This document shows positions 1 to 64,000 of a DNA stretch of 64,000 bases, in pieces. Positions within the stretch are counted from its first letter, which is position 1. The number at the start of each line of letters is the position of its first letter. A program made the position numbers and the translations under genes. Source of the stretch: Allacma fusca (taxonomy: Eukaryota > Arthropoda > Collembola > Symphypleona > Sminthuridae); contig OX359250.1 in the NCBI GenBank assembly GCA_947179485.1, forward strand, positions 43,036,600 through 43,100,599, given 5' to 3'. The notes under the pieces were generated by a model, which was not told the DNA's origin, did not search any database, and was given only the letters and a program-made list of their open reading frames with translations.

Positions 1-250
1 TTAAAGCGCTTGCACATACGGTGTGCGATAAAACGGTTGTGGATAAACTCATCTACGTATTGTAGTAATTTCTCCTCAGATGAACCGGAACTAAGCGGGT
101 CAAATCGGAGGTTTTTAAGTTTTTGGCCTTTAACAGCTTATTTATTAAAAATTAAAAGAATAAAACTAAAAACAAAAGATTTTGGTCATTTTCTGCATAC
201 ATATAATATGGGTATTGTGCCGTTTTGATTTTTTGTTCAATCTGTCACAG

Positions 251-863
251 TCAAACATGGGCCTTTGTATAACCGCAGCCTACATCCTGCCCAGATTCAA
301 AAATCATCGGCGGCCCCACCTCATAGCTTATTAGCAGAGCTTGTACAATTAAATCATCCCCCATTTACGGCATCCAATAGCGCTTAGCCTACCCATAATG
401 GTGTATAGGAAAGGCATTCAAGCGAACCCTTGCCTAGAAGGCAGTCCCTCGCCCTCAATCTTTCCTACACATAAGCCTGTATTCGTACCCTTCATATATA
501 TACATGATAAGCATAATACCTTTATTTGTCCATTTGTTAATCCATCTTCAATGGATGTGCAAACTGCAAACGTAAAACTTGCATTTTAATACCGGCGTGC
601 AGAGCAAGCTGTAGATCCGTTAGTATGCGTGCGCCATATATGCTAGCCAATCTATATTCCGTCTAGGCAGTTTAGTTTCTGTTTGGCCTAGCCTACTCTA
701 AAGCCCATAATGTTCCATTATTTGGCAACTTCCCTATATCTTCCCTGTACGCCCATCACTTTTTGGAGCCCATCCTAGACGCTAGCCTAAATTTTAACTC
801 CATTGTAAGCCAGCCTAGCATTTGTGCCTAGATTCCATCCTAGATCTAGGCTGGGGGCCCATC
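251..863. mobile_element. 613-bp insertion with 8-bp TSD TGTCACAG
   Basis: TGTCACAG stands on both sides (243-250 and 864-871). The right duplicate lacks the insert and reads TGTCACAG followed by GTCACAG (62398-62412), which is both target copies minus one base, as expected of DNA-transposon excision. The ends are only weakly inverted (CATGGGCC near the left, GATGGGCC reading in from the right). The interior is rich in CCTAGC/GCTAGG-type words. No transposase is encoded; the 63-aa reading frame inside looks like noise. Confidence 0.75.
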
Positions 864-1058
864 TGTCACAGTACCATAAAGTTGCGTATCAGTGAGTTTC
901 GACATATTATATATTAGGGAGCGGGCACAAATGATGTCATACAAAATAGAGACTTTTTATGACTCACTAAGAAATCATTCACTGTCATATCCAGTAATGA
1001 CTGATTGTATATGACATCATTCGTATGTACCAACGTAAGACGAAGTTGGCGTTCTCTG

Positions 1059-1858
1059 CAAGGATGGGAATCGGAATCGGTATCGGAATTATATTCGAAA
1101 ATTTGAGGATTTTAATTCATATTGGAATTCCAAATAATCCCCAGGAAGTATTTTAATTCAAAATCGCATTCAAAAAATTTTTTGGAATCGGAATTGGTAT
1201 TCAAATATTTTTTAATGAATTCCGATTAAAATAAAGTATTGTTTTCAATAGTATATTTCATCAAATGTGCATACTCAAATATAAATTGTCACAATTTTTT
1301 ACTTGCAGCATAGAGTTAATCAAAGAGCATTGGCGAACGTTTTCTTCATCCGAAATTAACGTGCTTCCGCATTATACGTAAAATAGTCGACTTATTAGCA
1401 CTTGTCAGAGGCTTTTAACGGTTGTGCTCAAAACTATTGTTTGTCCTACAGGTTAATTACTCAAGTAATTTAAATCGTTGACACTAAAATTTTTATAGGT
1501 AACTAAAAATGGGCCAAAGAAAATTAGTAACGTTGGAGTTCAAATATCAGTTTACCGTGTTTTTTCCCCTAAATTTATACTTAATGACCTGCGGGGGAAA
1601 CTAGCTTCCCAAAACATTGATGATATCATGTTTTTAAGGTTGAACGTTTTCCGTAATTAATTCTTTGTATTTTCAGTATACTAGAAGTATTCAAATAAAT
1701 ATTCAAATCGGAATTCATAACGAACGAATACTTGAGGATATTTATATCCGTATTAGAATTCATATTTTTCAGTATTGCTATAGGTATTTTAAATCGTTCT
1801 TCGCCTTGAATATTTTAATTCGAATTAGAATTCATATTTTTCCGATTTCCCATCCTTG
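1059..1858. mobile_element. hAT-like non-autonomous element, GGAATC word family
   Basis: Starts CAAGGATGGGAATCGG and ends with the inverted form CCGATTTCCCATCCTTG; GTTCTCTG flanks both sides (1051-1058, 1859-1866). It is 800 bp. Both subterminal regions consist of GGAATC/GATTCC-type words in inverted orientation, with a unique AT-rich centre. It encodes no protein. The identical insertion is at 62604-63403, and a larger relative by word content is at 36140-38422. Confidence 0.85.
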
Positions 1859-3052
1859 GTTCTCTGCCAACATCCAAAAAATTTAATCGTTTGCGATTGT
1901 ATGCGTCATCGTTGGTCGAGTCTGTTTTGTATTAAAGCGGACCAGTGAAAGTAACTATTTTATGAAGCACTTTTATACGACCTATCTCAATTATATTGTC
2001 TAATTAGACACTACATTCTTGATTTTTTTACGCATTGTAGAATCAAAATTTCGGATTTTTTAAAAATTACATGCACATTTTTAAAATTATGGAAATACTT
2101 TTGACTGCCGGCAGACTCAAATATGCACTTTTAAAAACATTTAAACTCAAGGAAAGCATAAAGACTACATTGTAAAATTTTGAAAAAGTGCATATTTGAG
2201 TCTGCCGGCAGTCAAATTGGGGAAAATCCTAAACGGGTAATTTATATACACACCGCCAGGATGCAAGCATTGCTTGCTCTCTGCGAACGTAATACACGTG
2301 CAGCGCCTTCGTTGTACACAGAAAGCCCTACCCTACTAGCACAAGAAAGTAGGCCCAGCGCATTTTCCATGCCCGGGGTGTCGGAAACGTGCACGGGCAG
2401 GAAGCGATACACATAACCAGCGCATGTTATTCGCACAAATATTTGCGCCAATTATCATGACATCGTTTTGCATCAATATAGCGCCGGTTTTACAGCTCAT
2501 TTACACAAGAGGGTAAAATAACGCAAAATCGGCGCATATTCTGCAAACAAACTTTCGGCATTAGTCACGTGATGAGAAGTCATGCGCACAAACTGAACTG
2601 TCAGCACGGAGGGATATATAACATCCAGTAGTTTCCAGTTACATGCAAAGATGCAAATGTTAGCACTAGAAAGGTAGCCCGCTTCGCTGGTCAATGTAAT
2701 ACTCTCTTCTAATTTGAAAGAGTGGGCCCGGAGGACCGATTACGTCTTGGAATAATACGGATTTGATATTCAAATTTATTCAGTTAATCAACGCGGCTTA
2801 GATACAACCAAGACAATACCGCTGCACACCCAGCGATTGCATGGAATTATTTACTACCTTCCCAATTTTCATTTGCTTTGCTGAGCCAGCAATTGGTGGC
2901 TGTGCAGTGCTCTAGTATAAGAGAATTATTCCAGTAGTACAACTCATTTCAAATAGTTTACATTACATCACACCAAAAAATCATGGTTGATCGCTCTTGA
3001 CAAATTTCCAAAGGCCCTGGCCATGCCCAATGTTTTATCTATAGATAGGTAG

Positions 3053-3698
3053 TTATAGCTCATTATTGAGTGATTACCTTGCGGAACCGTACTCGAACTC
3101 GTACTCGAAATCGAAGCATCGAGTATGAACTCCAATCCAAGGTACTCGTACTCGCCACATATACGAGTACTCAGGAAAATACTTGAAATAAGCGACCGAG
3201 TTCCAGTTCAGAACCCGAACTTGTTTCATACTCGCGAGTACGGAACTGTAAATACCGAAATCCCGTACTCGTACTCGTGCCGTGACTCGAGTCTTCATAC
3301 TCGAGTATTTAATAATAACAAGACCACAATTGAACAGTGATTTTTCTCCAGCCATGGATATTCTCTTAGGATCCAATAAGTCATTTTAATTTAATTTCAT
3401 ATTAGCGCCTTCGTCTCTTTACTGGAAATTCAAAAGTTTGCAATACTTGTGTGCACGTGTACGCGTACTCGTATATTGAGCATGTGGTACTCGAACTCGA
3501 ACTCGATAACCCTTATGAGTATTTTTATTGAACTCGTACTCGTTTGATACTTGTACTCGTGAGTATGTGAAAAATCGTTACCCGTACTCGAAACCCATTT
3601 CAAGTATCGAGTATTCACAAAAATTTGACCGTACTCGACTCGAACTCGTACTCGTACTCGATACTCGCCGGTATACTCGAACTCGATAAGGAGCTATA
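3053..3698. mobile_element. hAT-like non-autonomous element, CGAGTA word family
   Basis: Begins TATAGCTCATTATTGAGTG and ends GATAAGGAGCTATA. The flanks TAGGTAGT and GAGGTAGT differ at one base of eight. Arms are made of GTACTCGA/TCGAGTAC words. A longer copy (840 bp) in reverse orientation sits inside the Gypsy pol at 41051-41890; this copy lacks roughly 200 bp of its centre. Reading frames here are by-products of the repeated words. Confidence 0.8.
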
Positions 3699-3702
3699 GA
3701 GG

Positions 3703-4197
3703 TAGTGTTTCTGAACGGTCCAAAAACATGGACTCGAACCGACTCGTTTTCCCGAACCGAAAAAAATCCCTTTGCTGTTCCCGAAACCGGAACCGATATG
3801 TTCGAGTCCGGGACATTTTTGCCTTCCCGGAACCGATCCGGAAAATAAAATCGGTTCCCGGACCGGTTCCCGTTCCTTCCCGAACAGGCAGAAAATGCAT
3901 AGGATTCATTTTCATGGAAGTCAAAATTGTGTCGCGTTTTCAAATTATAGTTGACAAATGCTTGGCAAATGCATGTTTTGCGTTTTCATCCAAAAAGGCA
4001 GCTTTAACAAACGCTTCCCGAAAACTTTCGGTTTTGATTTTTGTACCCGAAACCGGACCGAAAGTAACGGTTCTTTAAACCGTTGACCCGAAACCGGACC
4101 GAAATTTAACGGTTCTTTAAATCGTTGACCCGGAACCGTACCGGAACCGAAACCGAACCGGAACCTCGGGAATTCCCGATACCGAACAGAAACACTA
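3703..4197. mobile_element. hAT-like non-autonomous element, CGGTTCC word family
   Basis: Starts TAGTGTTTCTGAACGG and ends CCGAACAGAAACACTA, with TATAGAGG on both sides (3695-3702 and 4198-4205). The 495-bp interior is almost entirely GGAACCG/CGGTTCC words. It inserted into the target duplication at the right edge of the 3053-3698 element, so it is the younger of the two. Confidence 0.85.
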
Positions 4198-4205
4198 TAT
4201 AGAGG

Positions 4206-5206
4206 TAGTATGTTATAGAGTTATTTCCGCATGAAGTTAATTCATTTAACTTAACCGCTGAAAACCTTAAAATAACGTTGGTAGTAAATATTGAGTTACT
4301 CTCCTCAATTAATTTACCTTGCTGGTCGGTATCAGCAATTTTGAAATTTATTTTTCCCGACGTATGTAGCTCCAGAAATTGCCACATACAACTAACAATG
4401 TGTGAAAACTGGTGATGAAAAACAAATTCCAAGTCGATCAAATTTTTGTCCCTGACTTTTATTAACTGGCATCACAAAACTGTTTTGGAGCAGCTTCAAA
4501 TTTGTTGTTTATATGACATGTTTTTGGGTTTCTATTTCTCCAGCAGAAAATTCCGTCCGATTCCGAAATCCTTGGAGCAAAAAAAATTTCCCGCAGGATA
4601 TTCCGCCCAGTTCCGAAAACCTTGGAAGAACTATGTGTATTTGTCCCGCAGATGATTCCCGAAAAACAAATTAGTTTGTCCCGATCATGACCTGAAATAA
4701 CTCGGGGCAAAAATATTTGTCCCGATCACGTCCTGAAATATTTCGAGGCACAAATCTTTTTTTGCCGATCCCGACTTGAATTAACTGGGGGCAAAAGTAT
4801 TTGTCCCATCCAGTCCTGCAATAACTTGGCAAATTGTGGGATTAATATTTGTTCCGAAATTATCCCGTCCCCTGCATGTTTCCAACTTAAGCACATAAAG
4901 ATCACTTAGTTTGCCCTTACACAATCACATTCATACTTATTGGCTACTGTACAGAGTTCAGTACTCGTCGTAGTTATGGTAGGAATACGAACGCAAAGAG
5001 AGACACGTCGGTTTGGAATTAATAGAGGAGATTGAAGTAGGGAAGTGCATTGAAAGCCTATAGTAGTACCGCTTGAACTCTGCTGCGTATAATCAAATGA
5101 TTTATGGTCTGGAGGATAGTTTTTTATCAGTAGTTTATTATTACATTACAATAGAAAACTACAGTTAATTTTTGGAGAGATTTTGTGAGATTGGGAACTA
5201 CACTAA
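4206..5206. other. Unassigned sequence with a degenerate TTTGTCCCGATC array
   Basis: No gene is supported. Between about 4655 and 4860 a unit of about 60 bp recurs three to four times (TTTGTCCCGATC, then CTGAAATAACTCGGGGC). From 4540 to 4630 related words occur (TTCCGCCCAGTTCCG). This looks like half of another word-array element whose ends I cannot define. 4206-4440 and 4870-5206 show no recognisable structure. Confidence 0.5.
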
Positions 5207-5640
5207 GGGGGCATGCATAAATTATATAACGCTTAGACGGTCGGTGGTGGTTTTTCTTAACGTTACGCTAACGTTACGCACAGTAGGTAGTACCTGTGTA
5301 CTCTTTTACGTAACGCAATATTTGATTAGACCCGATTTTAACGCGTAGGCATTCTTGCAATATTTAGTGAAAATATTTGGGAGCGAGGTTTAAATTTTAA
5401 GAATATATGCCCTTTCACAGAATAACGTAACTATATTGGAATAAAAGTTGGATTAACACAATAAGGTTAATGGGAGTATTCCGATATAATTTTAGCACTA
5501 ATTATTTAAGTTATGCATAAATTAGTTATCATTGCGTTATGTATGATAGTGGGGGTTAGATGACAGCGTTACGTATGCGTTACTCGGGGTCGGAGGTGGT
5601 CAAAAATGTGGCAAAATAGCGTTATATATTTCATGCATGC
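5207..5640. mobile_element. 434-bp MITE with CACTAA flanks
   Basis: Inverted termini contain GCATGCATAAATTATATAAC on the left and the inverse of GCATGCATGAAATATATAAC on the right. CACTAA occurs directly on both sides (5201-5206, 5641-5646). The 6-bp duplication and the terminus differ from the 8-bp-TSD elements, so this belongs to another superfamily, not identified. The interior repeats CGTTACG words (near 5260-5275, 5568-5582). No coding capacity. Confidence 0.65.
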
Positions 5641-6441
5641 CACTAACAATGAGCAGTACGTTATCAACTACACCTTAAGCGTACGGTTAGGATTGCGCCA
5701 TTGAGAGTCATAAACTCTATGCTATCTCTTATAACTGGTGTGATATGGTGTGATTAATAAATTGGCTAGTGGCTTGTATGGTGCAGTTTAGCAAGGCATA
5801 GACATAGGGCATGTCGCTATCTCGTTTAGTCTTAATACGCCGGCGTCAGACAGAAACCCCATGGCCTAGACAGCATTGAGTTACTTGCACTGTATGATGA
5901 TTCGAGCGGGTAGTTTCAAATGTGTACAGACAGGATTGGATTTGATAAAGGAAGATCTTTTATCTTAAGTCCTAGTGCTTAAAATAATTGTGAAGGTCTA
6001 CAAAAACAATACTTAAATACCCGGAAAAAAAGGTTTCAGACTGTTCCGCATTCTTTCGTAAACGCTGAAGGTAATTCGTTTCAATAACCTACTATATGGA
6101 TAATCGCTATTCGGAACAAAATAGCAGAACTTTCCTAGTCAATTCCAAGTGGCCGTTTTACTCAGCTAAAGTTTGGAGTCAATGCGGTAATGTTCGTTCA
6201 CATGAAAAAATTAATAGTATTATCAATAGGATTAAAAGGGATAGCGAAATTATATATTTAACATTTATATACTGAATTGCGATTTGGTTAGATCATGACA
6301 TCAATGTAAGGACCTCAGATACATATGATGTTGCCCTTGGGGAAATGTGAACACGTGTTTTAGTATCTTGCTGTAGTCCCTATTTAATAGTTCTCAATAT
6401 TTTGATTGGTTTAGAGTTCCAGCAGATTGGGATCATCAAAC
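5641..6441. other. No recognisable feature
   Basis: About 800 bp of AT-rich sequence within the 5.58-kb element. I find no credible exon, inverted termini or tandem repeat on either strand. Confidence 0.5.
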
Positions 6442-7355
6442 CAGAGCTTCTGCCGGGGACGGGACGTCGGGACACTGGACGTCCCCGGGGACAAAATAAT
6501 TGTCCCCATGTCGTAATCGGGACGGGACGGGGACAAAAAAATTGTCCCAATTATATTCGGGACGGGACGGGGACAAAAAAAATTGTCCCCATTATATCAG
6601 GGACGGGACGGGGACAAAACAAATTGTCCCCACTATATTCGGGACGGCACGGGGACAAAACAAATTGTCCCCACTATATTCGGGACGGGACGGGGACAAA
6701 ACAAATTGTCCCCACTATATTCGGGACGGGACGGGGACAAAACAAATTGTCCCCACTATATTCGGGACGGGACGGGGACAAAAACAATTGTACCCATTAT
6801 TTTCGCGACATGCTGTTTGGTCGTGTATATAACGTGACGGGACGAGCAAGCATAGCAGAACAAGGATAACGTTTCAGCTTTAATGCTCGTGAGTGATTGA
6901 TGAACACTATTTCACCGAATGTAAGACATTCGATTTCAGGTTGTAGAAAATGAGGCTTGTTGTTTAAAAAATTCAGGAAGAATCTTGAAGCCACGATTCT
7001 ATAAATGTGTTTTTATGTGTTTGGTATAAATATTGTTTGTACGAAATTTTCCTCATGTTCCGATTTTTCGGTATGAGAATGTCAACAACTGTTTTTAGTA
7101 ATTATCGGGACGGTACAGGAATTCTGTTCACATGCCACGATTTTCCGGACCGGGGACAATATTTTTTTTAATTTTGGGGACGGGACGGGGACAACGTTTT
7201 TTAAAATTTTGGGGACGGGACGGGGACAAGATTTTCGTCCCCATGTCCCGACTTTCGGGACCGGGGACAACGTTTTTAAAATTTTTTGGGGACGGGACGG
7301 GGACATGGCTTTTGTCCCCGTGTCTCCATTGACGGGACGGGACTGGGGACAAAGG
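6442..7355. repeat. GGGACGGGAC array element, with 41-bp tandem repeats
   Basis: Starts with a hAT-like terminus CAGAGCTTCTGCCGGGGAC. From about 6518 to 6800 a 41-bp unit (GGGACGGGACGGGGACAAAA followed by an ATTGTCCCC half) is repeated about seven times. Each unit can fold because GGGGACA faces TGTCCCC. After a unique centre, 7150-7350 repeats a related, longer-spaced unit. No right terminus or target duplication was found. A short relative ending AGAAGCCCTAC is at 46602-46750. Confidence 0.7.
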
Positions 7356-7910
7356 TTTTTAAAAACTAATTTTTATCGAAGACACTAGAGAGGATCTGAA
7401 AAAACTTAAGATTTTTCAGCGAGTATTCTCAAGCAAAGACAAATCAGGGATTCCAGACTTTCCACTGCGAATAACAACATAAACAAGTTTGAAAATTGGC
7501 AACAATCACGTCGCCAATTTCATCCATCGTCCAGAACCAAGAAATTAATTCAAGTGTTTATGTACACCTCATTATTATAAACAGGCATTAATGATTTTTT
7601 GTAAATTCTTGGTGTGCGCCCAATAGTTAATCATAAATAATTAATTTACAATATTTCTAGTGGAACTTTTATTTCCACTATCATCAGTCATAAATTCGGC
7701 CCTAATTATGCATATAGCCACCGCACATTTTCTGCACCGTATTTACGCTGGTTTATGTGCGCATTTGGAATGCACATTTACGGGCGCAAAATCAGCGTGA
7801 CAACTTATGCGCATTATAATAATCGGGAAACTTGGCCAAACCGTGCGTCTGACAAGCGCAAACCACTTGCGTCGATCCCGCGCCTTCCCGAGTCAGTTGT
7901 GCTAGTAGGG

Positions 7911-8196: not shown

Positions 8197-10110
8197 CAGG
8201 GTTGGCCAATTGAAAATGCCATGGCATTTTGGGCATGAATTGAAAATGCCCAAAATGCCCGGGCATTTTCGGCATCTATGGCATTTTGGGCATTTTTGGC
8301 ATAATCCGCGTAGGGCAGGCATTTTGGGCATATTCAATCATTTCTTGGGTTACTTCTGCCTGGACGCTATCTATTATTTTTTAGCAAGGTAAATTTCGAT
8401 ACATGTTTTGTTTGAACTAATGCAAATATCTTTATAATTGCATACCTGAAATTTCATTAACTGCAGCATGTCTTGATTCACTATACTAAAATTTTTATTA
8501 TCATTATTTTAAATCTCATTCCATTTTTTAATTTTAACTTGATATTTAATCCCGATACCTCGAATCAATGACAATATTCAGCTTCATTGTTCAGACATTG
8601 GTAAAAATAAAATGTGTAATTACTTTCCTAACAAGCGGTTGGATTATACCATAAACTGGCGTGCTCGCACGAAAGTTTAAAAGCCCCAGTGGAGGTAAAC
8701 CGGGAATTATCCAAATGTAGTACCAAAACGTGTATTGCTCTCGACAACGATGTGACCAAAGAAATAGCTTTAAGTTCACAAGAATCAGCGTTGGTCAAAT
8801 CATTCTCAACAAAGCCAGAACCGAGTTCATCAAAACAAATTAGACATGATTATCATGTGTTTAAAATATCACTGTAATCCTCGAGCTGGAAAAAAATATT
8901 TTAGATGACGACGAAAATTATTATAGTTTTACTTTTCACGAGTCCGAAGGTGAGTTGATGTTGAGGATATTGTTTAATTAGATTAATAATTCACAGGGGA
9001 AGAAACGATGTAGGAAAACTAACAGTTTACAAATTGCTATGCTTTAGATTAATTCATTCTGTAAAATGCATATTTTAAAATGAAGTTTGGCATTTAAAAA
9101 AATCTTTAAACAAGAGCGGTAAATAATGATTATTTACAAAAGAATCGAAAATGCCCAAAATGCCTGCCCAAAATGCCGGGCATTTTGAAAGTTGGGCATT
9201 TTCGGCATTTTCAGGGCATTTTCAACCGGGCACAGAGGTGTCCATCCTTCGAAGGATTTCCTTCAGAGAAGGCTTCTTTGAACGAATGAAGCGTTATCTT
9301 TGGCAATTATGAAGGGAAGGGAAGGAAGGCTGGAAAGGAAACGAAGGCTGAACGAAGGCTTCTGCTCATTGCAGATATAATGGAATGTGAAGGAACATAT
9401 TGTTTTTACGCCTTCGAACGCCGCTGGAACTTGCAATTCCATCTACTATATTTTAGGCAAAATTCTTCCGTAACGTAAGTTCATGTACGTACGTACACCG
9501 TTACTCAACTGAAAACTATTTTTCTGGCGGGTCTGCTTAACGTTATTCTGAAATATTTATATCACAAAGGCAGCATGATACCCGAAGTAAGTATTTTATA
9601 CCCTTCTTTGTACATAAGTACATACTGATAATAATTAATATATAACATAATAATTGCTGGAGCTTTGATTCGTGCAAGAAGAGCTACACTTTCTATTAAT
9701 ACTGTTTCAAAAATGATTCAATATCGCGAATATCGCCTTTCTAGCTTAAAATGGAAGCAGTGATCTTACAATCAGTGCATCTTCCAACATGAATCGTTTT
9801 GTTTACAAAAGCTCTGATTTTGTCACTTGTGTTAAAAGATTTGCGATAAATAAATGAACATGGATCGACGGTAACGCATGAAGGTCATTTAAATAATTTT
9901 TGAAGGCTGAAGGAAGGATTATAGCATGGTTTTGAATGAAGGAAGGGCGAAGGAAGGGTAAACATTCAGAAGGCTTCATTTTACGGAATGATGAAGGAAC
10001 GGGTAATTGTAAACGGTTCCCCTTCTGAAGGATGAACGAACGTGTTTTCAAATGGACACCTCTGACCGGGCAGGCATAAAACCGAGGGCATTTTCATTTG
10101 GCCAACCCTG
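8197..10110. mobile_element. hAT-like element, AAATGCCC word family
   Basis: Starts CAGGGTTGGCCAATTG and ends with the inverse form TTTGGCCAACCCTG. TCTGAGAG flanks both ends (8189-8196, 10111-10118). Subterminal parts are dense in AAAATGCCC/GGGCATTTT. A second complete element (9233-10064) sits inside the right arm. Word-related fragments occur at 12833-13245, 16446-16510 and 48160-48250. No transposase is present. Confidence 0.85.
9233..10064. mobile_element. hAT-like element, GAAGG word family, nested
   Basis: Starts CAGAGGTGTCCATCCTTC and ends ATGGACACCTCTG, flanked by ACCGGGCA on both sides (9225-9232, 10065-10072). It is 832 bp, and both arms are built of GAAGG/CCTTC words. A truncated relative is inside the intron of the gene at 18.7-20.2 kb (19411-19951). 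It inserted into the right arm of the AAATGCCC element. Confidence 0.85.
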
Positions 10111-11730: not shown

Positions 11731-11895
11731 CAGATGTGGATTATTAAAATAATTTTTACCCTGGCCCAACCCTCAAAATAGTGTGAGCTTTTACATATGT
11801 AATGTGAGGGCCTTAGTCAACATTTTGTTTTACCCTGGCACTAAATGTTTTAACCTGGCCGGGCCAGGGTGGGCCACCCCGTAAATCCACCCCTG
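11731..11895. mobile_element. 165-bp hAT-like MITE with empty site
   Basis: Starts CAGATGTGGATTATT and ends AAATCCACCCCTG, with CTTACAGG on both sides (11723-11730, 11896-11903). The 61-kb copy of the host element has the empty site (ATTCTTACATGG near 61392). The same family, inverted, is at 49066-49219. The interior carries CCAGGGTGGGCC-type palindromes. Confidence 0.9.
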
Positions 11896-15605: not shown

Positions 15606-16429
15606 TAGGCATGATATTAACGATCTAACGATACGATATTCTCGTTAATATCGTACATTTTTGACGAACGATGTTGAACGATAATTCTCGTTTTTTTCAA
15701 ACGATATATCGTCACAATAAGGTATCGCACAATCTAGCGATAATCGCTGAAACTGTATGTCCACAGCCAAAATGCCCTGGATCATAGCGCTGGAACCATT
15801 AAAAACTCACTATTACACTCTTTCGTTGCTCGGTACTTTATTTAAGAACAGCAACAACAATTAGCAAACCGTAAGACGCCATCAACCCATCTTTTTTATG
15901 AATCAAATTTACTATTTTATTAAATTTGCAAGACATACATATCTGCATTACTCCTGACACATTTAAAAAAACTTATAAAATGCCGAAACGAATTCGTCCA
16001 ATAATTATTGAGATAATTTATTAATAATAATAAATAATAATAGAGGATGAGGAGATAAAAGTGAGACGATTGCTGAGAAAATTGTAAGCGAGGACAGTGA
16101 CGGGGTCGCAAGTGGATTTTGTATATTTGAATGACAACTGTTAATATCAATTGATTTTAGGTATTTTTATCATAACAGTAAATTTTGGTTTCCGAATAAT
16201 ATTTCTGAAATGTACACCAAAAAAATAATTTCACGTCAATTGTACATATAACAGGTACCTGGAACAACTTTAAGAAACTCACTTGCATTGTTTTTTATAG
16301 TACCGACCATGCTTTTACGGTGTAAAAGTTTATCGTTTATATCGTTCTTCAAATTCCATATCGGAAATTTTTGTATAAACGATAACGATATTAACGAGAG
16401 TTTAAAAATGAACGATAATATCATGCCTA
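15606..16429. mobile_element. hAT-like element, AACGATAT word family
   Basis: Starts TAGGCATGATATTAACG and ends with the inverse form ATAATATCATGCCTA, flanked by GCTCATAT (15598-15605 and 16430-16437). Its 824 bp carry AACGATAT/ATATCGTT words at both ends, with a unique centre. No protein is encoded. Confidence 0.85.
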
Positions 16430-17103: not shown

Positions 17104-18060
17104 CAGTGGTCGGACTTTGATTCATCAATACAATACTCTAGTGCTATTTTTGTACAGGTACCTTTTCCTGTACTGTGCTTTACTATAGTCTGGATATGAT
17201 AATTGTTTCAATACAATGCTTTACTTTTAAAAGCACATCGAAATATGTTTCAATACACTGCTTTACTACACTAGTTATGCAAAAATATTCATCAATATTC
17301 TGCTTTACTCTACTAGTTTTACATAAATAGTTGTCAATACTGTGCTTTACCCATAGCAGTACGTATATAATCCTCAATACTGTATTATTGACTAGCAACA
17401 TTCGACTAATATTTTGCAATAGAAGCTGTTTCTGTATTTACTTTTTCCGTGTCAAGTTTCTAACGTATTGTCTTCAGCAAGTTTGTTATGTAGTTTCTGT
17501 AGATGCTCCTAGTGCACAATAAATTAATTTGTCAATAGCTTATTTTGGAAGGTATTATTGAAGTAATATGGATTTAAATTACTTGGTAACATTTATTATG
17601 CCTTTTTAATAGATTTGCCCTCCATTACTTGGGAATTAATAGCTTAAAACTTATTTATGGCTGAATATTCCGCACGGAGTTTCTCAGATTCTTTCAGAAT
17701 TACAACAATAATCGCAAATATCGTACGTTCATGCTGTTTTCGTTTGTCGTTTTAATGTCGTATGCCAAAGGTCTGACGTAAGTATTTCTCCCATAAATTT
17801 ACTAGATGGGGTCCTTTGCGTGTATGAATAATTTGCTGTACTTTATATGAATTTGTATTGTTTAAAACAATACGTTGCTTTGCTTTACTTGTTTTTATTG
17901 TTATTGCGGCTTTTCAATACTGTGCCAATAGTTCATGTTATGAATAGATGTAGATACTGTACTCTGCTTTATTTACGAAACATAATGATCATGCGTTACT
18001 GTAACAATGCTGTACTTTTATCAATACTGTACTAAAAAGTACAGTACAGTCCGACCACTG
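17104..18060. mobile_element. hAT-like element, AATACTGTGC word family
   Basis: 13-bp inverted termini CAGTGGTCGGACT / AGTCCGACCACTG, with GTGCAGAG on each side (17096-17103, 18061-18068). The 957-bp interior repeats CAATACTGTGCTTTAC-like words. The terminus (AGTGGTCGGA) is shared with the element at 26421 although the internal words differ completely. No transposase is encoded. Confidence 0.9.
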
Positions 18061-25305: not shown

Positions 25306-26330
25306 CAGAGCTATGCAAAGTACTTGGTCATTGTATTTGGATACTGCGCATCATAAAACCATACACAATGTCGAAGACATAATCACGCTTAGGAGTGGGA
25401 CTGTTCCGGAAGTTTCCAGGATTTTTTGGAATGGTCTGGTCCTTGAGCCTGGACCAGACCATTTGATCTGTTCTCAGTGTAGGACTAGGCCCATAAGTTC
25501 TTTTAGACTGTAGGACCGGAACCATCTGGTCCGTACAAATTGCTGGAACAGGAACATATGTTATGTTCATAATACGATTACAACAAGCAAGCATCTGGCA
25601 ATTTACATAATGTTTTGAATAATTTATTTGATTATTTGAAACAAAGCGTAAAATTGTCAGCAAAACGATAATAAATGAAGCCCCGTAAATTTTAATAATT
25701 ATAATTATATGAATGTGTATATGATTAACAGTTATATATATTATTAATATTATATATATTAATAATGATAATTTTAAAATATTTTCTATTATTTTTACAA
25801 CAGGAATTCTTACAAATGTTACTAACCAATACTAATTATTATTAACGTCTCTTTGTTATTCATCCAGCATGTAGCGTATCGTCTCTCGATCGTACTATCA
25901 CGCTGTACAATCTATTCTACTCGCGGGAATTGGAAATACTTAAAATGGTCATCTATCGAATCTGGTCCGACCATTTGAAATGTTTGCTGGAACGTTCCAA
26001 ATGGTCTGGGCCAAACCAAGGACCAAACATTCTGGTCTGTTCTTTGAGCTGGACCAGGTTTAATTGTTCTATCAAGGTTCTTGGACCAGATACATTTGGT
26101 CCTTTCGTAACCAGGGAACCGATCGGAACAGACCAGAACGGACCAAAATTTCTGGTCCGGACCAGAACAGTCCCATTCCTAAATTCACGCTGGTGAAAAA
26201 TATTTTGAGCCTTGAAAATATTTTGAACACTTCATTTTGAATGTTCTTACATATGCTTGAAAGTAAGTAAATGCCAAATACATTTGTACTAACATGCTTT
26301 AAATATACTATCAAGTAACCCTCGCCCCAT
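25306..26330. mobile_element. Truncated AAAATAC-family hAT-like element
   Basis: Starts CAGAGCTATGCAAAGTAC like 47141-48050 and, after an 794-bp insertion, continues at about 26191-26320 with sequence matching 47836-47930 (GTAAGTAAATGCCAAATAC). The right terminus is lost. Confidence 0.65.
25389..26182. mobile_element. hAT-like element, TGGTCC word family, nested
   Basis: Starts TTAGGAGTGGGACTGTTC and ends GAACAGTCCCATTCCTAA. The flanks AATCACGC and ATTCACGC match at seven of eight bases. Arms consist of TCTGGTCC/GGACCAGA words. It is inserted in the AAAATAC-family fragment. Confidence 0.8.
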
Positions 26331-26420: not shown

Positions 26421-28158
26421 TAGTGGTCGGATCGGTTCAGTTCAAAACTGAATATTTTCAGTTCAGTTCAGTTCAGTTTGGTTCATGCAATTTCGGTTCA
26501 GTTCAAGCTGTAAATCAAACAAATCGGTTCAGTTCAGCTACCGAACCGAACTGAACTGAAACGAGTGAACTGATTTTTACTGGTTCACAGAAGCTCGCTG
26601 TTCCACAGAAGTACAACGCGTCATTTCAAACTTTCATTACTACATTTTGTTAAAACCAACGGTCAGCCTATGCACACGGGTCCATGATCTTTATCGTCAC
26701 CATTTGAGTTCTCTCTTACTAATAGTAAAGCACATTCACGTTACCATTTCGTATCCATTCTTGAAGAATACGACTGACCTAGCTACACAGTTTTTACCAT
26801 CCAGTTCAATACACATTATTTACGGGGATACGAAGTATTGTTTACCCCAGACCCAGACGATGGTACGTTTTTAATCACAAAACTATTTTTTATGTTTTTA
26901 CTTGTTCCAGTCAAGTTCTTGGTTATTGTGATGCTTAGCGGGATATGATGAATTGTACCCGCTTGAATCTACTGAAAACATTTATGATAAATAAATCATT
27001 ATTTTCATAATCGAAATTTTATTTTAATTAAGGCTGACAGCATGCTTGCAACAAGTTCATTCAGTGAACTAGTTCCTGAACTGAACTTTTCAAAATATTA
27101 TATACGTTTTGAGTGAACATGAATGAACGGAAATATATTAATAGAGTACATGCCTGAACGTGAACTGAATTATTTTCCCCTTTGAATGAACTTGAATTAT
27201 TAACGATAAGTTTAGCAAATCGCTGAACTGAACTTAGTTGAACTTCAGGAAATATTAGAACATGTAGTAATAGATATTTTATTTGACATATTGACTCCAT
27301 ATTTCCACCTGCAAATACCACGAAATCATCGTGTTTTTTGTCTCAGATGTGCTTTTATTATGTGTACTAAGCGATTCGTCTTGGAAATCCCAAGTGCATG
27401 AACTAGACAGGTATAATTGCTGCAAAGTGAATGTCCAAGAAAATCCCACCTCAAAGTGATTTGTGATGAAATCCGAATTTTATCAAAACTAGTGTTTAAA
27501 AATGGGGCAGTAAATTATATTCTGTGTTTAGTTTACCTAAGAATATAAACTAAAAGTATACCAGACAAGGAATTTATTTTTTCTGCAATGCCGAAACTGG
27601 GATTTGTTATCCCTTAATATTCGTAAATACTCGATTAAATATTAGCTATATTATATATAAATTATTGGCTTAAATACAGAATTTATTACATCATTATTAA
27701 AATGAGCTGAACTGAACGAATAACTGGTTTACCTGAACTTGAATTGAACTGATATAATTGCAAAATTAATTTGAACTGAACTGAATGAGCGGTAAAAATA
27801 ATAGTAACGAACTTGAGAGAACGTCATATTTGTATTTGTACAGTGAACTGAGTTGGAATGAATGTGTTTGTAATCCATGGAGTATTGAGTTGAACTTGAA
27901 TTGAATTTTACCACGAAGTTGCAAGCATGGCTGACAGTATATTTTAATTCCTCCATACATATTCCAACCCAACCATTGTAGTTCCAATGGCGCCGTGAAC
28001 CATTTTATAATCAGTTCAGTTCAGTTTGCAGAGGAAACCAAACTGAACGGAACTGATACGCTGCAAATTGAACTGAAAATTTCAGTTTCGATTCAATTCA
28101 CTTTGTGAACCAAACCAAACTGAAATGTGTGAACCAAACTGAACCGATCCGACCACTA
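26421..28158. mobile_element. hAT-like element, CAGTT word family (copy 1)
   Basis: Starts TAGTGGTCGGATCGGTTCAG and ends with its inverse CCGATCCGACCACTA, flanked by CGCCCTGG (26413-26420 and 28159-28166). The arms are GTTCAGTTCA/TGAACTGAAC arrays around a unique 1.4-kb centre without coding signal. It shares AGTGGTCGGA ends with 17104-18060. Confidence 0.9.
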
Positions 28159-41050: not shown

Positions 41051-41890
41051 TATAGCTCCTTATCGAGTTCGAGTATACCGGCGAGTATCGAGTACGAGTA
41101 CGAGTTCGAGTCGAGTACGGTCAAATTTTTGTGAATACTCGATACTTGAAATGGGTTTCGAGTACGGGTAACGATTTTTCACATACTTACGAGTACGAGT
41201 ATCAAACGAGTACGAGTCCAATAAAAATACTCATAAGGGTTATCGAGTTCGAGTTCGAGTACCACATGCTCAATATACGAGTACGCGTACACACAAGTGT
41301 TGCAAACTTTTGAATTTCCAGTAAAGAGACGAAGGCGCTAATATGAAATTGTCACAAAAAATCGTTGTATCCACCAGTCACGACTCTCTCAGGTTTCAAA
41401 GTATAATCTCTCTCCATTTAGTACATTACTATTGAAGTTAAAACAAATAATTAGTTAATTCTAATGGCTGAACATATTAACACAAACTCTTCGACAGGCG
41501 TAGTTGAATTGATTGAAAATTTACAGAGACACTTTACCAACTGCATGTTCAATTTAAAATGTTGGGGGAATTATTTGTGAGAAATTAAATGAATCTAAAA
41601 AAATCACTGTTCAATTGTGGTCTTGTTATTATTAAATACTCGAGTATGAAGACTCGAGTCACGGCACGAGTACGAGTACGGGATTTCGGTATTTACAGTT
41701 CCGTACTCGCGAGTATGAAACAAGTTCGGGTTCTGAACTGGAACTCGGTCGCTTATTTCAAGTATTTTCCTGAGTACTCGTATATGTGGCGAGTACGAGT
41801 ACCTTGGATTGGAGTCCATACTCGATGCTTCGATTTCTAGTACGAGTTCGAGTACGGTTCCGCAAGGTAATCACTCAATAAGGAGCTATA
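41051..41890. mobile_element. hAT-like element, CGAGTA family, inside pol
   Basis: Starts TATAGCTCCTTATCGAG and ends CAATAAGGAGCTATA, with GTGGAGGG on both sides (41043-41050 and 41891-41898). The 840-bp arms consist of GAGTACGAGT words. It separates the integrase zinc finger from the catalytic core. It is the longer relative of 3053-3698, inverted. Confidence 0.95.
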
Positions 41891-45851: not shown

Positions 45852-45869
45852 CCGGCTAAACTTCCACCA
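45852..45869 (-). promoter_or_regulatory. Primer binding site of the Gypsy element
   Basis: TGGTGGAAGTTTAGCCGG on the minus strand directly after the 5' LTR; starts TGG, as required to pair with a tRNA CCA end. The tRNA is not identified. Confidence 0.6.
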
Positions 45870-47140: not shown

Positions 47141-48050
47141 CAGAGCTATGCAAAATACTTGGTCTTCGATGCCAAAATACAAAATAAAATACCTGAATTA
47201 AAATATGGAAAATACAAAGTAAAATACCTCAGGTTACATTGCTAAAATACAAATAAAAATACAATACTTGGTAGAAAATTTAAAATACTCAAATACAAAA
47301 TACTGTATTTTAAATACAATACTTTTCTTAAAATACCCACCTAATCCTCACTATTTTCGATTTTTACAACGAACATTTTAAAACAGTCACTTCAAAGACT
47401 GCATATAAGACATGTGTAGTAACAAATTGTTCAACGGTTGCCGAATTGGTCAGTCAATTAGAATTGTATTTTAAGTCGTTTTGACTGTTTACGAAGTGAC
47501 AGATTAATATGAAATTTTTATTTATTAGTAAATAAATGTATTTTCGGATTTATTATAATAAGGGGCTAGTAACTGAAAATTAAATCGAGTAGGTATTCGT
47601 CTTCGGCGTATCTTAAATATTGTTGTTGAAGAGGCAAAATGGTCTGCGCTGTAAAAACCATGCGCACGTAGACAATTTCGCCTCTTTAACGACGATGTAC
47701 AGTATCGAGAATCTGAACATGTTTGATGTAGACAAGGGATTCATGTCAACGTATGTTATTCCAATGTGTAAAATGGAATTTTCAGACATTGCACATCGTA
47801 TAAGCTACATACAATGTCAAAATCAGAAATAATACCAGCGAAAAGTATTTTGAGCAAAATACTTTATTTGAATTACATTTCATATTTCATTGAGAGTAAG
47901 TAAATACCAAATACTTTTGTACTTCCTGGCTCTCAAAATACTAAGTACAAAATACTTGCTTACTGCTTGCAAATTTTGAAATACAAAATACTTTGTGGTC
48001 TGAAAATACGTATTTTAAAATACTGTATTTGAAAATACTGCATAGCTCTG
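47141..48050. mobile_element. hAT-like element, AAAATAC word family
   Basis: Starts CAGAGCTATGCAAAATAC and ends ATACTGCATAGCTCTG, with CTTATTTC on both sides (47133-47140, 48051-48058). 910 bp, arms of AAAATAC/GTATTTT words. Relative at 25306. Confidence 0.9.
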
Positions 48051-56085: not shown

Positions 56086-56955
56086 ACCCCGTGATACCCG
56101 TACCCGGCGGGTTTATGCCTATTTTCAAATTCTTGCACCCATACCTAGACCTAGTGGTGTAATATTGTTCGCGTTTTGTTTGTTCTTTTGTTCAGTTCTT
56201 GTTTTTTGAACAAAACAAAACAAACCAAATCAGTTTTCAAAAAAACAAAACTAGAACAAAACAAAACCGCGATAAGGTAAAACAAAACTATAACAAACAA
56301 ACCACCACGACAGCGGGTAATAACCTTTTCAAACTTTGAGTTTGGAGAAGTGCCCAAAAGCACTTGAGTGAGTTACAAATAGCAACATGACCTCAAATTG
56401 ACCTGAGTGAACACTCATAGAAACTATCAACAAAAGGTTTAATGATTGTATTAAATAAGAGTTGTAAAGCATATTCGCCTAAAATTAGTTAAAGCCCATT
56501 TTTTTTATTTTAACGTCCTTTGTGCACGGACCAAATTTACACCAATCAACTTCTATATGCACTATTACTAATATACAACAATCAATTTCACAAATTTCTA
56601 ACATCTTCTACATCCGTAGAACAAAACAATATGGATTGTTTTTTGAACAATACCGATTGTTTTTTGAACAATACCGATTGTTTTTTGAACAATACCGATT
56701 GTTCAAAAAACAAAACTAAACTAAACTCGGTGAACAAAACAAAACTCAAATTGTTCTACTTTTGTTCATTTCCGAAGTGAACAAAACAAAACAAAACGAA
56801 CAAATTACAGCACTACCTAGACCCATACTCGTACCCGAAATTACGAGCCGACCGAAGTGTATCCGGGTAGTACCAGAAATCGTTCGGGTACACTAAATCG
56901 GCACCCGGGTAGTACCCGTACCTGTTTACCTGAGTAATATCTATACCCATGCCGA
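56086..56955. repeat. GGGTACCCG-word element split by an insertion
   Basis: 56086-56151 and 56816-56955 contain CCCGTACCCGG and CGGGTAGTACCCG words. The 56152-56815 element separates the halves. No termini are assigned. 56956-57270 is unassigned. Confidence 0.5.
56152..56815. mobile_element. hAT-like element, AACAAAAC word family
   Basis: Starts TAGTGGTGTAATATTG and ends AAATTACAGCACTA, flanked by CCTAGACC (56144-56151 and 56816-56823). 664 bp with GAACAAAACAAAAC/GTTTTGTTC arms. 56638-56705 repeats a 21-bp palindromic unit (ATTGTTTTTTGAACAATACC) three to four times. Confidence 0.9.
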
Positions 56956-60804: not shown

Positions 60805-61937
60805 CAGGGCTGCGTTCAAGTCAAGTTATTTTAGACAACTTGACTTGAACTTGAAAAAATTGTCTAAACGAGGTATCCGCACTTGCACTTGATTAATCAA
60901 GTTTCTCGAGCAACTTGAGTATTCAAGTACACTTGATATAAATTCATTTAATATATCTTGAACTTGATCATAACTTGACGTTCAAGTTGGACACATAACT
61001 TGACTTGAACGTGAACTTGAACTTGATTATTGAAGTATTTTTTCGTAAATGAATAAACAATACTAAAAATTTGGTCCACAATTATTATGGTTAGGTCGTA
61101 ATTAGGCTAAACTAAACGGCATGCGGAAGATATTCTTTACTTTATATTGCTAAAACGTTTAACATACTTGATCGAATAACTAAACATTGTAATCTAATTT
61201 CCTAATTTCCATTATTAAGAGACTAGCAATCATATTATTGGCCTGTTATTAGTGTCGCACTCAACTGGTGAGTGCAACCAGCAGTTATATTCATAAATAT
61301 TTGTCGTTAATTATGCTCAACAGCTTAGCAAATATTGATTTAGAAGATTGGTGTTGTTCATCTGCGCCATCATGTTTAATAGCAGCAAAAAATATTCTTA
61401 CATGGAATAATAAATTGGTCTTATACTTCTTAGCTTCAGAACAGGTGTAGTGAACAATCACATCATTTTTATAATGGAACAAGAACCCCGAGTATCAAGG
61501 ACATCCTTATAAAGCAATTAGTCGGAAATTTTAATTATTCAATTCAAAGTATAGAAACATTGCACAAGAATTATTCTCGACCACTGGACATCAGGCGACT
61601 TTAACGTCGATGGAATAAAAACAAACACAAAGATGTCATTATAATGATAATTGACTCCTAATATAATTTTTGTAGTAACATGCGATGATGCCACTATTTA
61701 GGCAATGCTTACATTGCTTTTCAGTGACAAAAACACAAGTTATACCCAAGTTTTATTGAAGTACTTCCATTCAGTGTACTTGAACTTGACTTGATTATGC
61801 AATCAAGTAATAAATTATTAACTTGAACTTGATTGAACGTGAACTTGAAAATTCAAGTTTAAAATTGCCTACACTTGACTTGAACTTGATACGCACTTGA
61901 ACTTTTCAAGTTATACTTGAACTTGAACGCAGCTCTG
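60805..61937. mobile_element. hAT-like element, CAAGTT word family, short copy
   Basis: Starts CAGGGCTGCGTTCAAG and ends CTTGAACGCAGCTCTG; 1,133 bp. It shares arms and core with 10219-12465 but lacks the two nested insertions. The flanks ATGGAGAG and GCTCAGAC do not match, so the target duplication has been lost. Confidence 0.85.
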
Positions 61938-62155
61938 GCTCAGACTAGCGAGGCAGTAGCGCTTCGCTTCTGTTGCAATCGATGAATCTATTGCAGGTTT
62001 GGATTTTTTAATATTTATCTATGTCGTCCATTCTTAACACATATTGTAAACGTAGTGCTATGATGTAACACCATGAACTAGTATCAACCTATACGTTTCC
62101 CTATAAATACCTTAAAACAGTTGTATACATGCCAGTGAGTGTTCCCTATTCAAGA
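61938..62155. other. Unassigned spacer before the right duplicate
   Basis: No feature recognised. Its counterpart in the left copy lies outside the window, so it may or may not belong to the duplicated unit. Confidence 0.4.
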
Positions 62156-64000
62156 TTAAAGCGCTTGTACATACGGTGTGCGATAAAACGGTTGTGGATA
62201 AACTCATCTACGTATTGTAGTAATTTCTCCTCAGATGAACCGGAACTAAGCGGGTCAAATCGGAGGTTTTTAAGTTTTTGGCCTTTAACAGCTTATTTAT
62301 TAAAAATTAAAAGAATAAAACTAAAAACAAAAGATTTTGGTCATTTTCTGCATACATATAATATGGGTATTGTGCCGTTTTGATTTTTTGTTCAATCTGT
62401 CACAGGTCACAGTACCATAAAGTTGCGTATCAGTGAGTTTCGACATATTATATATTAGGGAGCGTGCACAAATGACGTCATACAAAATAGAGACTTTTTA
62501 TGACTCACTGACTAAGAAATCATTCACTGTCATATCCAGTAATGACTGATTGTATATGACATCATTCGTATGTACCAACGTAAGACGAAGTTGGCGTTCT
62601 CTGCAAGGATGGGAATCGGAATCGGTATCGGAATTATATTCGAAAATTTGAGGATTTTAATTCATATTGGAATTCCAAATAATCCCCAGGAAGTATTTTA
62701 ATTCAAAATCGCATTCAAAAAATTTTTTGGAATCGGAATTGGTATTCAAATATTTTTTAATGAATTCCGATTAAAATAAAGTATTGTTTTCAATAGTATA
62801 TTTCATCAAATGTGCATACTCAAATATAAATTGTCACAATTTTTTACTTGCAGCATAGAGTTAATCAAAGAGCATTGGCGAACGTTTTCTTCATCCGAAA
62901 TTAACGTGCTTCCGCATTATACGTAAAATAGTCGACTTATTAGCACTTGTCAGAGGCTTTTAACGGTTGTGCTCAAAACTATTGTTTGTCCTACAGGTTA
63001 ATTACTCAAGTAATTTAAATCGTTGACACTAAAATTTTTATAGGTAGCTAAAAATGGGCCAAAGAAAATTAGTAACGTTGGAGTTCAAATATCAGTTTAC
63101 CGTGTTTTTTCCCCTAAATTTATACTTAATGACCTGCGGGGGAAACTAGCTTCCCAAAACATTGATGATATCATGTTTTTAAGGTTGAACGTTTTCCGTA
63201 ATTAATTCTTTGTATTTTCAGTATACTAGAAGTATTCAAATAAATATTCAAATCGGAATTCATAACGAACGAATACTTGAGGATATTTATATCCGTATTA
63301 GAATTCATATTTTTCAGTATTGCTATAGGTATTTTAAATCGTTCTTCGCCTTGAATATTTTAATTCGAATTAGAATTCATATTTTTCCGATTTCCCATCC
63401 TTGGTTCTCTGCCAACATCCAAAAAATTTAATCGTTTGCGATTGTATGCGTCATCGTTGGTCGAGTCTGTTTTGTATTAAAGCGGACCAGTGAAAGTAAC
63501 TATTTTATGAAGCACTTTTATACGACCTATCTCAATTATATTGTCTAATTAGACACTACATTCTTGATTTTTTTACGCATTGTAGAATCAAAATTTCGGA
63601 TTTTTTAAAAATTACATGCACATTTTTAAAATTATGGAAATACTTTTGACTGCCGGCAGACTCAAATATGCACTTTTAAAAACATTTAAACTCAAGGAAA
63701 GCATAAAGACTACATTGTAAAATTTTGAAAAAGTGCATATTTGAGTCTGCCGGCAGTCAAATTGGGGAAAATCCTAAACGGGTAATTTATATACACACCG
63801 CCAGGATGCAAGCATTGCTTGCTCTCTGCGAACGTAATACACGTGCAGCGCCTTCGTTGTACACAGAAAGCCCTATATCACGCTCCATTCCTTCGGACCG
63901 CGCCGCAGCTCAACTAGTCCCAAATTATTTTTTTAATCATTTGGGATTGGTTGATTGTAGCCTAATAATATTTGGCCTCAATATTAACCACGCTATTTAA
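62156..64000. repeat. Segmental duplication, right copy
   Basis: Nearly identical to 1-2330 joined to 7911-8038. It lacks the 613-bp insert, leaving TGTCACAG+GTCACAG at 62398-62412. It also lacks the 5.58-kb TIR element, with the junction CCCTA|TATCACG at 63875/63876. It continues past the window end. Confidence 0.9.
62604..63403. mobile_element. hAT-like element, GGAATC family (duplicate insertion)
   Basis: Same 800-bp element and same GTTCTCTG flanks (62596-62603, 63404-63411) as 1059-1858; it was present before the segmental duplication. Confidence 0.9.

What the first reader, a model, noticed from the sequence alone, without database searches (positions are those of the whole stretch)
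1..64000. One terminal grammar, many private repeat words: a diversified set of non-autonomous hAT-like foldback elements
Seen: at least 17 independent insertions with exact 8-bp target duplications. Most termini fit YAGRG(G/C/T)TG (CAGAGCTG, CAGAGGTG, CAGGGTTG, CAGTGGTC, TAGTGGTG). Inside these ends each family is built from its own 5-8-bp word repeated in both arms, in opposite orientation: GGAATC, CGAGTA, CGGTTCC, AAATGCCC, GAAGG, CAAGTT, AACGATAT, AATACTGTGC, TGGTCC, CAGTT, CGGGTT, AAAATAC, AACAAAAC. Known: hAT transposases such as Ac bind short subterminal repeats (AAACGG) scattered in both ends. Inference: these words are multiplied transposase-binding sites, and the families record repeated shifts of binding specificity on a conserved cleavage end, or an amplification process that fills the arms.
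Basis: partly seen in the sequence, partly recalled or inferred. Interest (0 to 1): 0.88.

Follow-up and report, generated by a model that had tools for sequence, protein, structure and literature searches.

The report
Jumping genes with private address words
This stretch of a eukaryote's genome is packed with small hAT-type jumping genes whose ends each carry many copies of their own short DNA word, most likely docking sites for that family's transposase; transposase-bearing relatives in the same genome have the same design, so this is a rich example of a known principle with one unexpected twist: the words mostly face the same way at both ends.

Summary
The pattern is real. Fifteen independent insertions have exact 8-bp duplications and YA-type tips, 2 more have one mismatch, and 2 (X, Y) have other tips. 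Family words lie within about 250 bp of the ends and are rare elsewhere. The unnamed host genome holds many hAT transposase domains. In 20 of 31 regions that I fetched around them, the domain is bracketed by tips and an 8-bp duplication (19 exact), and the arms hold element-specific words. Window family E (9233-10064) is a 95-97% identical internal-deletion derivative of one of them, L017; L and Q share tips with L042 and L038, which carry BED fingers.

One claim fails: words are not inverted between arms. They lie on the same strand in both arms in 14 of 16 transposase-bearing and 9 of 15 window elements, so these are not foldback elements. BED-finger binding sites are the best reading, with published precedent. 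Identical tips occur with unrelated words (L029/L031). Whether finger residues track the word beyond ancestry is open. Known in kind, unusually clear, with a polarity I did not find in print.

The parts
1059..1858 (.). A: non-autonomous hAT-like element, tip CAAGGATGGGAA, word GGAATCGG (weak, not above shuffles); copy at 62604-63403
   Evidence: exact TSD GTTCTCTG
3054..3698 (.). B: tip TATAGCTC, word CGAGTA; same family as N
   Evidence: TSD with 1 mismatch; 97-99% identical to N over the two arm parts, inverted
3703..4197 (.). C: tip TAGTGTTTCTG, word GGAACCG/CGGTTCC, inserted at the end of B
   Evidence: exact TSD TATAGAGG
8197..10110 (.). D: tip CAGGGTTGGCCAA, word AAAATGCC, host of nested E
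   Evidence: exact TSD TCTGAGAG
9233..10064 (+). E: tip CAGAGGTGTCCAT, word GAAGG; internal-deletion derivative of the transposase-bearing L017
   Evidence: exact TSD ACCGGGCA; 94.9, 95.6 and 97.0% identity to parts of L017
10219..12465 (.). F: tip CAGAGCTGCGTTCAAG, word CAAGTT; second copy 60805-61937 without matching TSD
   Evidence: exact TSD CAATTGAG; arms 39/432 vs interior 126/644 differences between the copies
11731..11895 (.). G: short element, tip CAGGGGTGGATT at one end, no word arrays; same family as P
   Evidence: exact TSD CTTACAGG; absent from the second copy of F
15606..16429 (.). H: tip TAGGCATGATATTA, word AACGATA
   Evidence: exact TSD GCTCATAT
17104..18060 (.). I: tip CAGTGGTCGGACT, word AATACTGTGCTTTAC
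   Evidence: exact TSD GTGCAGAG
25389..26182 (.). J: tip TTAGGARTGGGACTG, word TCTGGTCC
   Evidence: TSD with 1 mismatch
26421..28158 (.). K: tip TAGTGGTCGGATCGG, word TTCAGTT; copy 30040-31777
   Evidence: exact TSD CGCCCTGG
27041..27929 (.). L: tip CATGCTTGCAAC, word TGAACTGA, nested in K; copy 30660-31548
   Evidence: exact TSD GCTGACAG; tip (10 of 12) and word as in transposase-bearing L042
36140..38422 (.). M: tip CAGGGWTGAAA, word GGAATCGG, inside the gypsy element, with a nested CGGGTT array
   Evidence: exact TSD CCTAACAC
41051..41890 (.). N: tip TATAGCTCCTTAT, word CGAGTA, inserted in gypsy pol
   Evidence: exact TSD GTGGAGGG
47141..48050 (.). O: tip CAGAGCTATGCA, word AAAATAC
   Evidence: exact TSD CTTATTTC; 93% identical partial copy in L012
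48833..50307 (.). R: tip CAGAGCTGCTT, word CGGGT; host of nested P; no TSD seen
   Evidence: related sequence in L043, L036, L034
49066..49219 (.). P: short element, tip CAGGGGTGGATT, no word arrays
   Evidence: exact TSD CTGAACCC
56152..56815 (.). Q: tip TAGTGSTGTAAT, word GAACAAAAC
   Evidence: exact TSD CCTAGACC; tip as in transposase-bearing L038

Best explanation
These are non-autonomous hAT transposons of many families. Each end has two address layers. The first is a 12-17 bp tip, cut by the conserved catalytic core, which also prefers targets whose duplicated 8 bp begin and end in G or C. The second is an arm of about 250 bp; the two arms together hold roughly 7 to 38 copies of a family-specific 5-8 bp word (A has 3), read by the BED zinc finger of that family's transposase. 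Many weak sites recruit a multi-finger transposase assembly and tell one family from another although tips and targets are shared. As transposase lineages diverge, finger and word change while tip and core change more slowly, so one genome holds many private words on similar tips. Non-autonomous copies arise by internal deletion that keeps both arms (seen for E). Words are gained by local tandem duplication (seen in L017) and kept because copies with a working arm are the ones that move. The same-strand polarity of the words makes the two ends non-equivalent. SHOWN: duplications, tips, arm-limited words, hAT domains inside elements of the same design, E as a derivative of L017, polarity, shared target preference, slower change of the F arms. 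INFERRED: the words are bound by the finger; word turnover follows finger turnover; polarity marks the ends.
For: 8-bp duplication signal at offset 0. PF05699 in 14 of 14 distinct C-terminal ORFs scanned from domain-bearing elements. zf-BED above cut-off in L042 (2.7e-7) and L038 (2e-6), just below it in L032 (20.4 vs 20.6 bits). Four residues (C, C, H, L) invariant in nine aligned finger segments. 20 of 31 regions bracketed. Words in 16 non-redundant domain-bearing elements: arms 21-81/kb, middle 0-4.6/kb. E versus L017: 94.9, 95.6 and 97.0% over 430, 295 and 166 aligned bp, with about 2.8 kb missing. F arms 39/432 differences, interior 126/644. Outer TSD bases G/C in 25 of 30 in the window set and 24 of 38 in the domain-bearing set. 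Published: Hermes BED binds subterminal repeats (PMC10368747, passages and section 7); Ac and Tgf2 repeats (PMC3260210, PMC4890040, passages); fingers of hAT-derived proteins have diverse measured motifs, and those of four hAT proteins match subterminal regions of their elements (PMC8097297, passages).
Against: No binding was measured. Within arms, word letters are not better conserved than spacers between copies (25/436 vs 43/778). Finger-word covariation is not separable from overall relatedness (n=11: word~dimer domain r=0.55, word~helix 0.41; partial word~helix 0.24, nominal p 0.07). Of ten finger ORFs scanned, eight gave no zf-BED match and L019 only E 0.076; the finger profile found no BED structure in the PDB. 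G and P have moved without word arrays; some maize Ds1 elements also move without the hexamers, and Ds-l elements that have them did not move (PMC3260210, passages). Transposase-bearing partners were found for 3 of about 15 window families, two of them by tip (for L also word) only. 11 of 31 regions showed no element that I accept; the transposase genes were not checked for being intact. T at 2 / A at 7 of the duplication (the hAT pattern as recalled) is seen in 21 of 38 of the domain-bearing set but only 12 of 30 in the window set. In Hermes the finger needs exact phasing, which the variable spacing here does not show.
Confidence: 0.8

Rival explanations
1. The words are by-products of replication slippage and gap-repair template switching that fill the ends with tandem copies; they need not bind anything.
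For: L017 has about six copies of a 29-bp unit in one arm; indels between the copies of F include 5, 6, 10 and 44 bp pieces of the array; tandem structure in K, M, D, Q; words no better kept than spacers.
Against: In B, E, H, L and O the information falls to about 0-0.3 bits within three bases of the core; the same word fills both arms but not the middle; arms change half as fast as the interior in F (for E 27/250 vs 29/202, weaker); published work reports a need for the repeats in Ac and reduced Tol2 excision when they are mutated.
Confidence: 0.15
2. One or a few transposases move all families through the shared tip; the words are family history only.
For: Shared target preference; identical tips with different words (L029/L031); G and P lack arrays.
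Against: Different words sit on elements with their own, different transposases and fingers; E matches L017 in tip and word together.
Confidence: 0.12
3. Foldback elements: arms pair into hairpins and this structure is the function.
For: X and Y have inverted arms, 82-91% complementary.
Against: 9 of 15 window elements have words on the same strand in both arms and 1 of 15 opposite; 14 of 16 and 0 of 16 in the domain-bearing set.
Confidence: 0.03

Closest known systems
Ac/Ds of maize (hAT)
   Same: 8-bp duplications, 11-bp TIR, many AAACGG subterminal hexamers bound by transposase within about 200 bp, deletion derivatives and filler-bearing relatives (PMC3260210, passages)
   Different: Here many families with different words coexist in one genome and in 64 kb; partners shown for few
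Tol2/Tgf2 and Hermes (hAT)
   Same: 17 and 18 subterminal repeats at the Tgf2 ends, called a defining feature of hAT (PMC4890040, passages); Hermes BED helix contacts AAGT repeats (PMC10368747, section 7)
   Different: Repeats there are described as haphazardly present (Tgf2 paper) or as strictly phased (Hermes left end); here they are unphased but mostly strand-polar across the whole element
CGGBP/BED domestications from hAT (PMC8097297, passages)
   Same: Related hAT fingers with different measured motifs, at least eight in one genome (coelacanth); motifs of four hAT proteins match subterminal regions of their elements
   Different: That work measured proteins on arrays; here the element arms themselves show a series of words
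Galileo and Foldback elements (Galileo: PMC3688188, passages)
   Same: Long repetitive ends proposed to supply many transposase sites
   Different: There the long repeats are inverted; here mostly direct. Galileo belongs to the P superfamily

Membership tests
hAT superfamily | 8-bp target site duplication | tested here: met
   15 exact and 2 with one mismatch in the window; 19 exact and 1 mismatched among 20 domain-bearing elements
hAT superfamily | short TIR with YA start (consensus YARNG, recalled) | tested here: met
   16 of 17 start YA (not J); 12 of 17 fit YARNG at one end or both; B, N, H, J, L do not
hAT superfamily | transposase with hAT dimerisation domain in the same family | tested here: met
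   For E by sequence (L017); for L and Q by tip (L042, L038). Not found for the other families; intactness not assessed
hAT superfamily | subterminal repeats in both ends | tested here: met
   16 of 19 elements above shuffles; not met for the short G and P, weak for A
hAT superfamily | N-terminal BED finger | tested here: inconclusive
   Above cut-off in L042 and L038, not in the ten ORFs; C, C, H, L pattern in nine aligned segments
Foldback elements | long inverted arms made of repeats | tested here: not met
   except X and Y
X/Y class | transposase of any superfamily | not tested
   no partner sought

The most novel reading that the evidence does not exclude
The strand polarity of the words is an end-identity code. 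Because the words mostly point the same way across the element, sites face inward at one end and outward at the other, so a ring of fingers can tell left from right even though the tips are near-identical. Together with tips that stay put while words drift with the finger, hAT-rich genomes would hold a readable dictionary of BED-finger specificity. The X/Y class would obey the same rule in mirror form: inverted words but unlike tips (CGTGTTCGGA at one end, GGAGTTASGGA-like at the other).
Probability: 0.3. Interest if true: 0.75.

Novelty: new member of a known kind. Interest (0 to 1): 0.5.

Why it matters
How BED fingers choose DNA is not well understood, although human regulators such as the ZBED proteins and CGGBP1 carry them (PMC8097297, passages). 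A genome with many hAT families, each displaying its word in many copies beside the gene for the finger that should read it, would let that recognition be decoded largely from sequence and then checked on arrays. The polarity, if functional, would explain how nearly symmetrical hAT ends are told apart; Hermes with two left ends was reported inactive (PMC10368747, passages).

Tried and rejected
Foldback reading: rejected by word orientation. A first k-mer version of the orientation test was weaker: 12 of 14 families direct, but ordinary window pairs also lean direct (400 pairs, mean 0.30, 64% above zero; Mann-Whitney p=0.04). In one search I wrote each word in its majority strand, several elements are relatives, and some pass the 0.1 threshold narrowly (L036 0.11, L041 0.14, L030 0.16, L018 0.17), so its sign p values (1.2e-4; 0.02) are too optimistic.

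Purifying selection on word letters: not found. An earlier cut of the same alignments looked favourable because it included diverged ends; I dropped it.

Finger-word covariation: suggestive but confounded.

Not counted as bracketed elements: a 1791-bp candidate in L012 with tips starting TGTCT and a self-complementary duplication, and weaker candidates (8-10 of 12 tip bases) in L015, L021, L024-L028 and L043. L014 and L016 were counted with 9 of 12 because their arms carry word arrays.

Relatives in viral contigs: two patterns gave three loci, which read as unrelated phage-like sequence. Rfam (gathering threshold) and tRNA scans of the window: nothing. Window ORFs: no hAT domain in 19 distinct ORFs scanned of the 33 listed. 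Ten paper searches listed no title on word polarity or on a one-genome series of words; Urasaki 2006 and Liu 2001 were not held and are known to me only through other papers.

Full report
WHAT WAS CHECKED. The window is eukaryotic in content, about 36% GC, and lies at C9:43036600-43100599 of a 392.7 Mb assembly in 91 contigs. It is a nest of transposons: a 13-kb gypsy element (33417-46456) whose two 587-bp LTRs are identical, a small element with identical 279-bp repeats at its ends (21809-25211), a reverse-transcriptase ORF at 51.9-54.0 kb (LINE type by my reading) and many short elements with inverted tips.

THE INSERTIONS. I listed inverted pairs 60-4000 bp apart and asked where exact 8-bp duplications fall. 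With 12/12 matching tips, 16 of 673 pairs have the duplication exactly outside the tips; offsets +1 and -1 have none and all 36 other offsets have 19 together. Fifteen independent insertions with YA-type tips have exact duplications, two more have one mismatch, and three exact ones (30040, 30660, 62604) recur in duplicated segments (26354-29977 = 29973-33596; 865-2330 = 62406-63875). Several are nested: E in D, L in K, G in F, P in R, C at the end of B. A second copy of F lacks G and shows the empty site. M and N sit inside the gypsy element, so they moved after it did.

THE WORDS. Each family has its own short word within about 250 bp of each end. Across 17 elements the own word occurs 14.6 times per 500 bp of arm and the words of other families 0.40 times; the largest exceptions are K and F, which contain L's word (11 and 10). 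A and M share a word. In 40,708 bases outside elements the words occur 0.17 to 2.1 times per kb. The top 6-mer beats all shuffles in 16 of 19 elements, not in A, G and P. In B, E, H, L and O the information drops to 0-0.3 bits within three bases of a 5-8 bp core and the spacing varies, as expected of sites rather than of a microsatellite; K, M, D and Q are more tandem.

ORIENTATION. The statement that the words are inverted between arms is wrong for most families. On the element's + strand the counts left+/left-/right+/right- are for example L 8/0/7/0, M 6/1/5/0, Q 6/1/7/0, O 11/1/9/3, E 9/2/11/1. Nine of 15 window elements have the same strand in both arms, 1 the opposite (F, weakly), 5 neither (C, D, H, J, K). 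X and Y are inverted.

TRANSPOSASE-BEARING RELATIVES. The genome search answered once: 150 scored matches to the hAT dimerisation domain among 860 candidates. I fetched 31 usable regions around matches chosen by score, reading-frame length and variety, not at random (one further stretch of 101 bases was not used). In 20 of 31 the domain is bracketed by tips and an 8-bp duplication, exact in 19. Leaving out four near-copies (L016, L020, L034, L035), 16 elements were scored. Their words are GAAGG (L017, L018, L031), AAGGC (L019), TAGGC (L013), GAGGG (L022), GTAGAG (L014), GTAAC (L029), AGACT (L032), ATAAC (L036, L037), CGGAT(A) (L030, L039), CGGTT (L041), ACAAC (L038, chosen by eye), TGAACT (L042); arms 21-81 per kb, middle 0-4.6. 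Fourteen of 16 are same-strand, none opposite, 2 neither (L037, L039). Several are relatives, so this is fewer than 16 independent cases.

LINKS TO THE WINDOW. E is L017 with about 2.8 kb of its interior missing: the left 425 bp at 94.9%, the right part at 95.6 and 97.0%. L shares 10 of 12 tip bases and the word with L042. Q shares 12 of 12 tip bases, at the closer pair of ends, with L038, whose word is ACAACAA rather than GAACAAAAC. Both L042 and L038 carry a BED finger above Pfam's cut-off. L026 holds a diverged domain-bearing relative of L without a clear duplication.

TIP VERSUS WORD. L029 and L031 have identical 12-bp tips, unrelated arms (cosine 0.00) and 45% identical dimer segments; L013 and L014 share 11 of 12 tip bases with unrelated words (best pair of ends). 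In the window, I and K share AGTGGTCGGA, and F, R and O share CAGAGCT, with different words. The target preference is shared: outer duplication bases are G or C in 25 of 30 in the window set and 24 of 38 in the domain-bearing set, which also has T at 2 / A at 7 in 21 of 38 (12 of 30 in the window set).

FINGERS. Nine finger segments align with invariant C, C, H, L, but eight of ten finger ORFs gave no Pfam zf-BED match and one only a weak one. In Hermes, side chains at -7, -5, -4 and -1 relative to the zinc histidine H71 (Q64, S66, N67, R70) touch the bases (PMC10368747 section 7). Here -4 is N in 14 of 15 (A in L013). Position -1 is R in the GAAGG trio and the GAGGG, AGACT and TGAACT elements, N for AAGGC, E for TAGGC, K for GTAGAG and GTAAC, T or S for ATAAC, D for ACAAC, Y or N for CGGAT. 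The trio with the same word shares GWxNHERHL; the equally close pair L013/L019 (77% of the dimer segment, against 73-80% in the trio) differs in helix and word. Over 15 elements arm similarity correlates with helix identity (Mantel r=0.22, p=0.013). Over the 11 with a dimer segment, helix gives 0.41 and dimer identity 0.55; the partial correlation is 0.24 for the helix and 0.41 for the dimer. So covariation is consistent with the idea but not shown beyond ancestry.

CONSTRAINT AND AMPLIFICATION. Between the two copies of F the arms differ at 39 of 432 sites and the interior at 126 of 644; for E and its partial copy the figures are 27/250 and 29/202, same direction, weaker. Word letters are not better kept than spacers (25/436 vs 43/778 over five arm pairs), as expected if most change postdates insertion, or if spacers matter too. 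One arm of L017 has about six copies of a 29-bp unit, so arrays can grow by tandem duplication.

COMPARISON. Subterminal repeats are called a defining feature of hAT, with 17 and 18 copies in Tgf2 (PMC4890040, passages). Ac transposase binds AAACGG repeats cooperatively (PMC3260210, passages). Array measurements show hAT-derived fingers with diverse motifs, those of four hAT proteins matching subterminal regions of their elements (PMC8097297, passages). The kind is therefore known. What the ten paper searches did not list is the polarity and the in-genome series of words on shared tips.

VERDICT. Real, hAT, known in kind, unusually clear in display; the foldback reading is wrong; the binding-site reading is likely; the covariation claim is open.

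Noticed in passing
28584-29464 (copy in the tandem duplicate, from 32203) and 55174-55838: Second class (X, Y): 8-bp duplications CAGTATAA and ATAATTAT, one tip CGTGTTCGGA and the other GGAGTTA-like, inverted word arms (GGAGATTTTTACGC; GAGGGAATATA). Superfamily unknown.
   Followed up: partly
251-864 versus 62405: 614-bp stretch absent from the 99.5% identical copy, where a partial double of the flanking repeat (GTCACAG) remains, like an excision footprint.
   Followed up: partly
2331-7910 versus 63875: 5.6-kb insertion with ends CCCTACTAGCACAA, flanked by TA; the paralogous site reads TATA. It carries B, C and a GGGGAC repeat block.
   Followed up: no
26354-33596: 3.6-kb tandem duplication, 99.97% identical, ending inside an LTR fragment; real or an assembly artefact.
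   Followed up: no
11069-11358: 290-bp near-perfect palindrome inside F, absent from F's second copy; its arm occurs alone next to the element in L030 (3763-3842).
   Followed up: partly
33417-46456: Gypsy element with identical 587-bp LTRs but two hAT insertions (M, N) inside, suggesting recent hAT activity.
   Followed up: no
6442-7340: GGGGAC/CGGGAC array with a CAGAGCTTCTGCC tip on the left only; perhaps a decayed word-arm element.
   Followed up: no
18584-18630: Solo right end reading TAGTGGTCGGATCG inward with a further word (ATTCAA), same tip as K.
   Followed up: no
L017:3110-3289: About six near-perfect copies of a 29-bp unit holding GAAGG in one arm of the transposase-bearing element.
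   Followed up: partly
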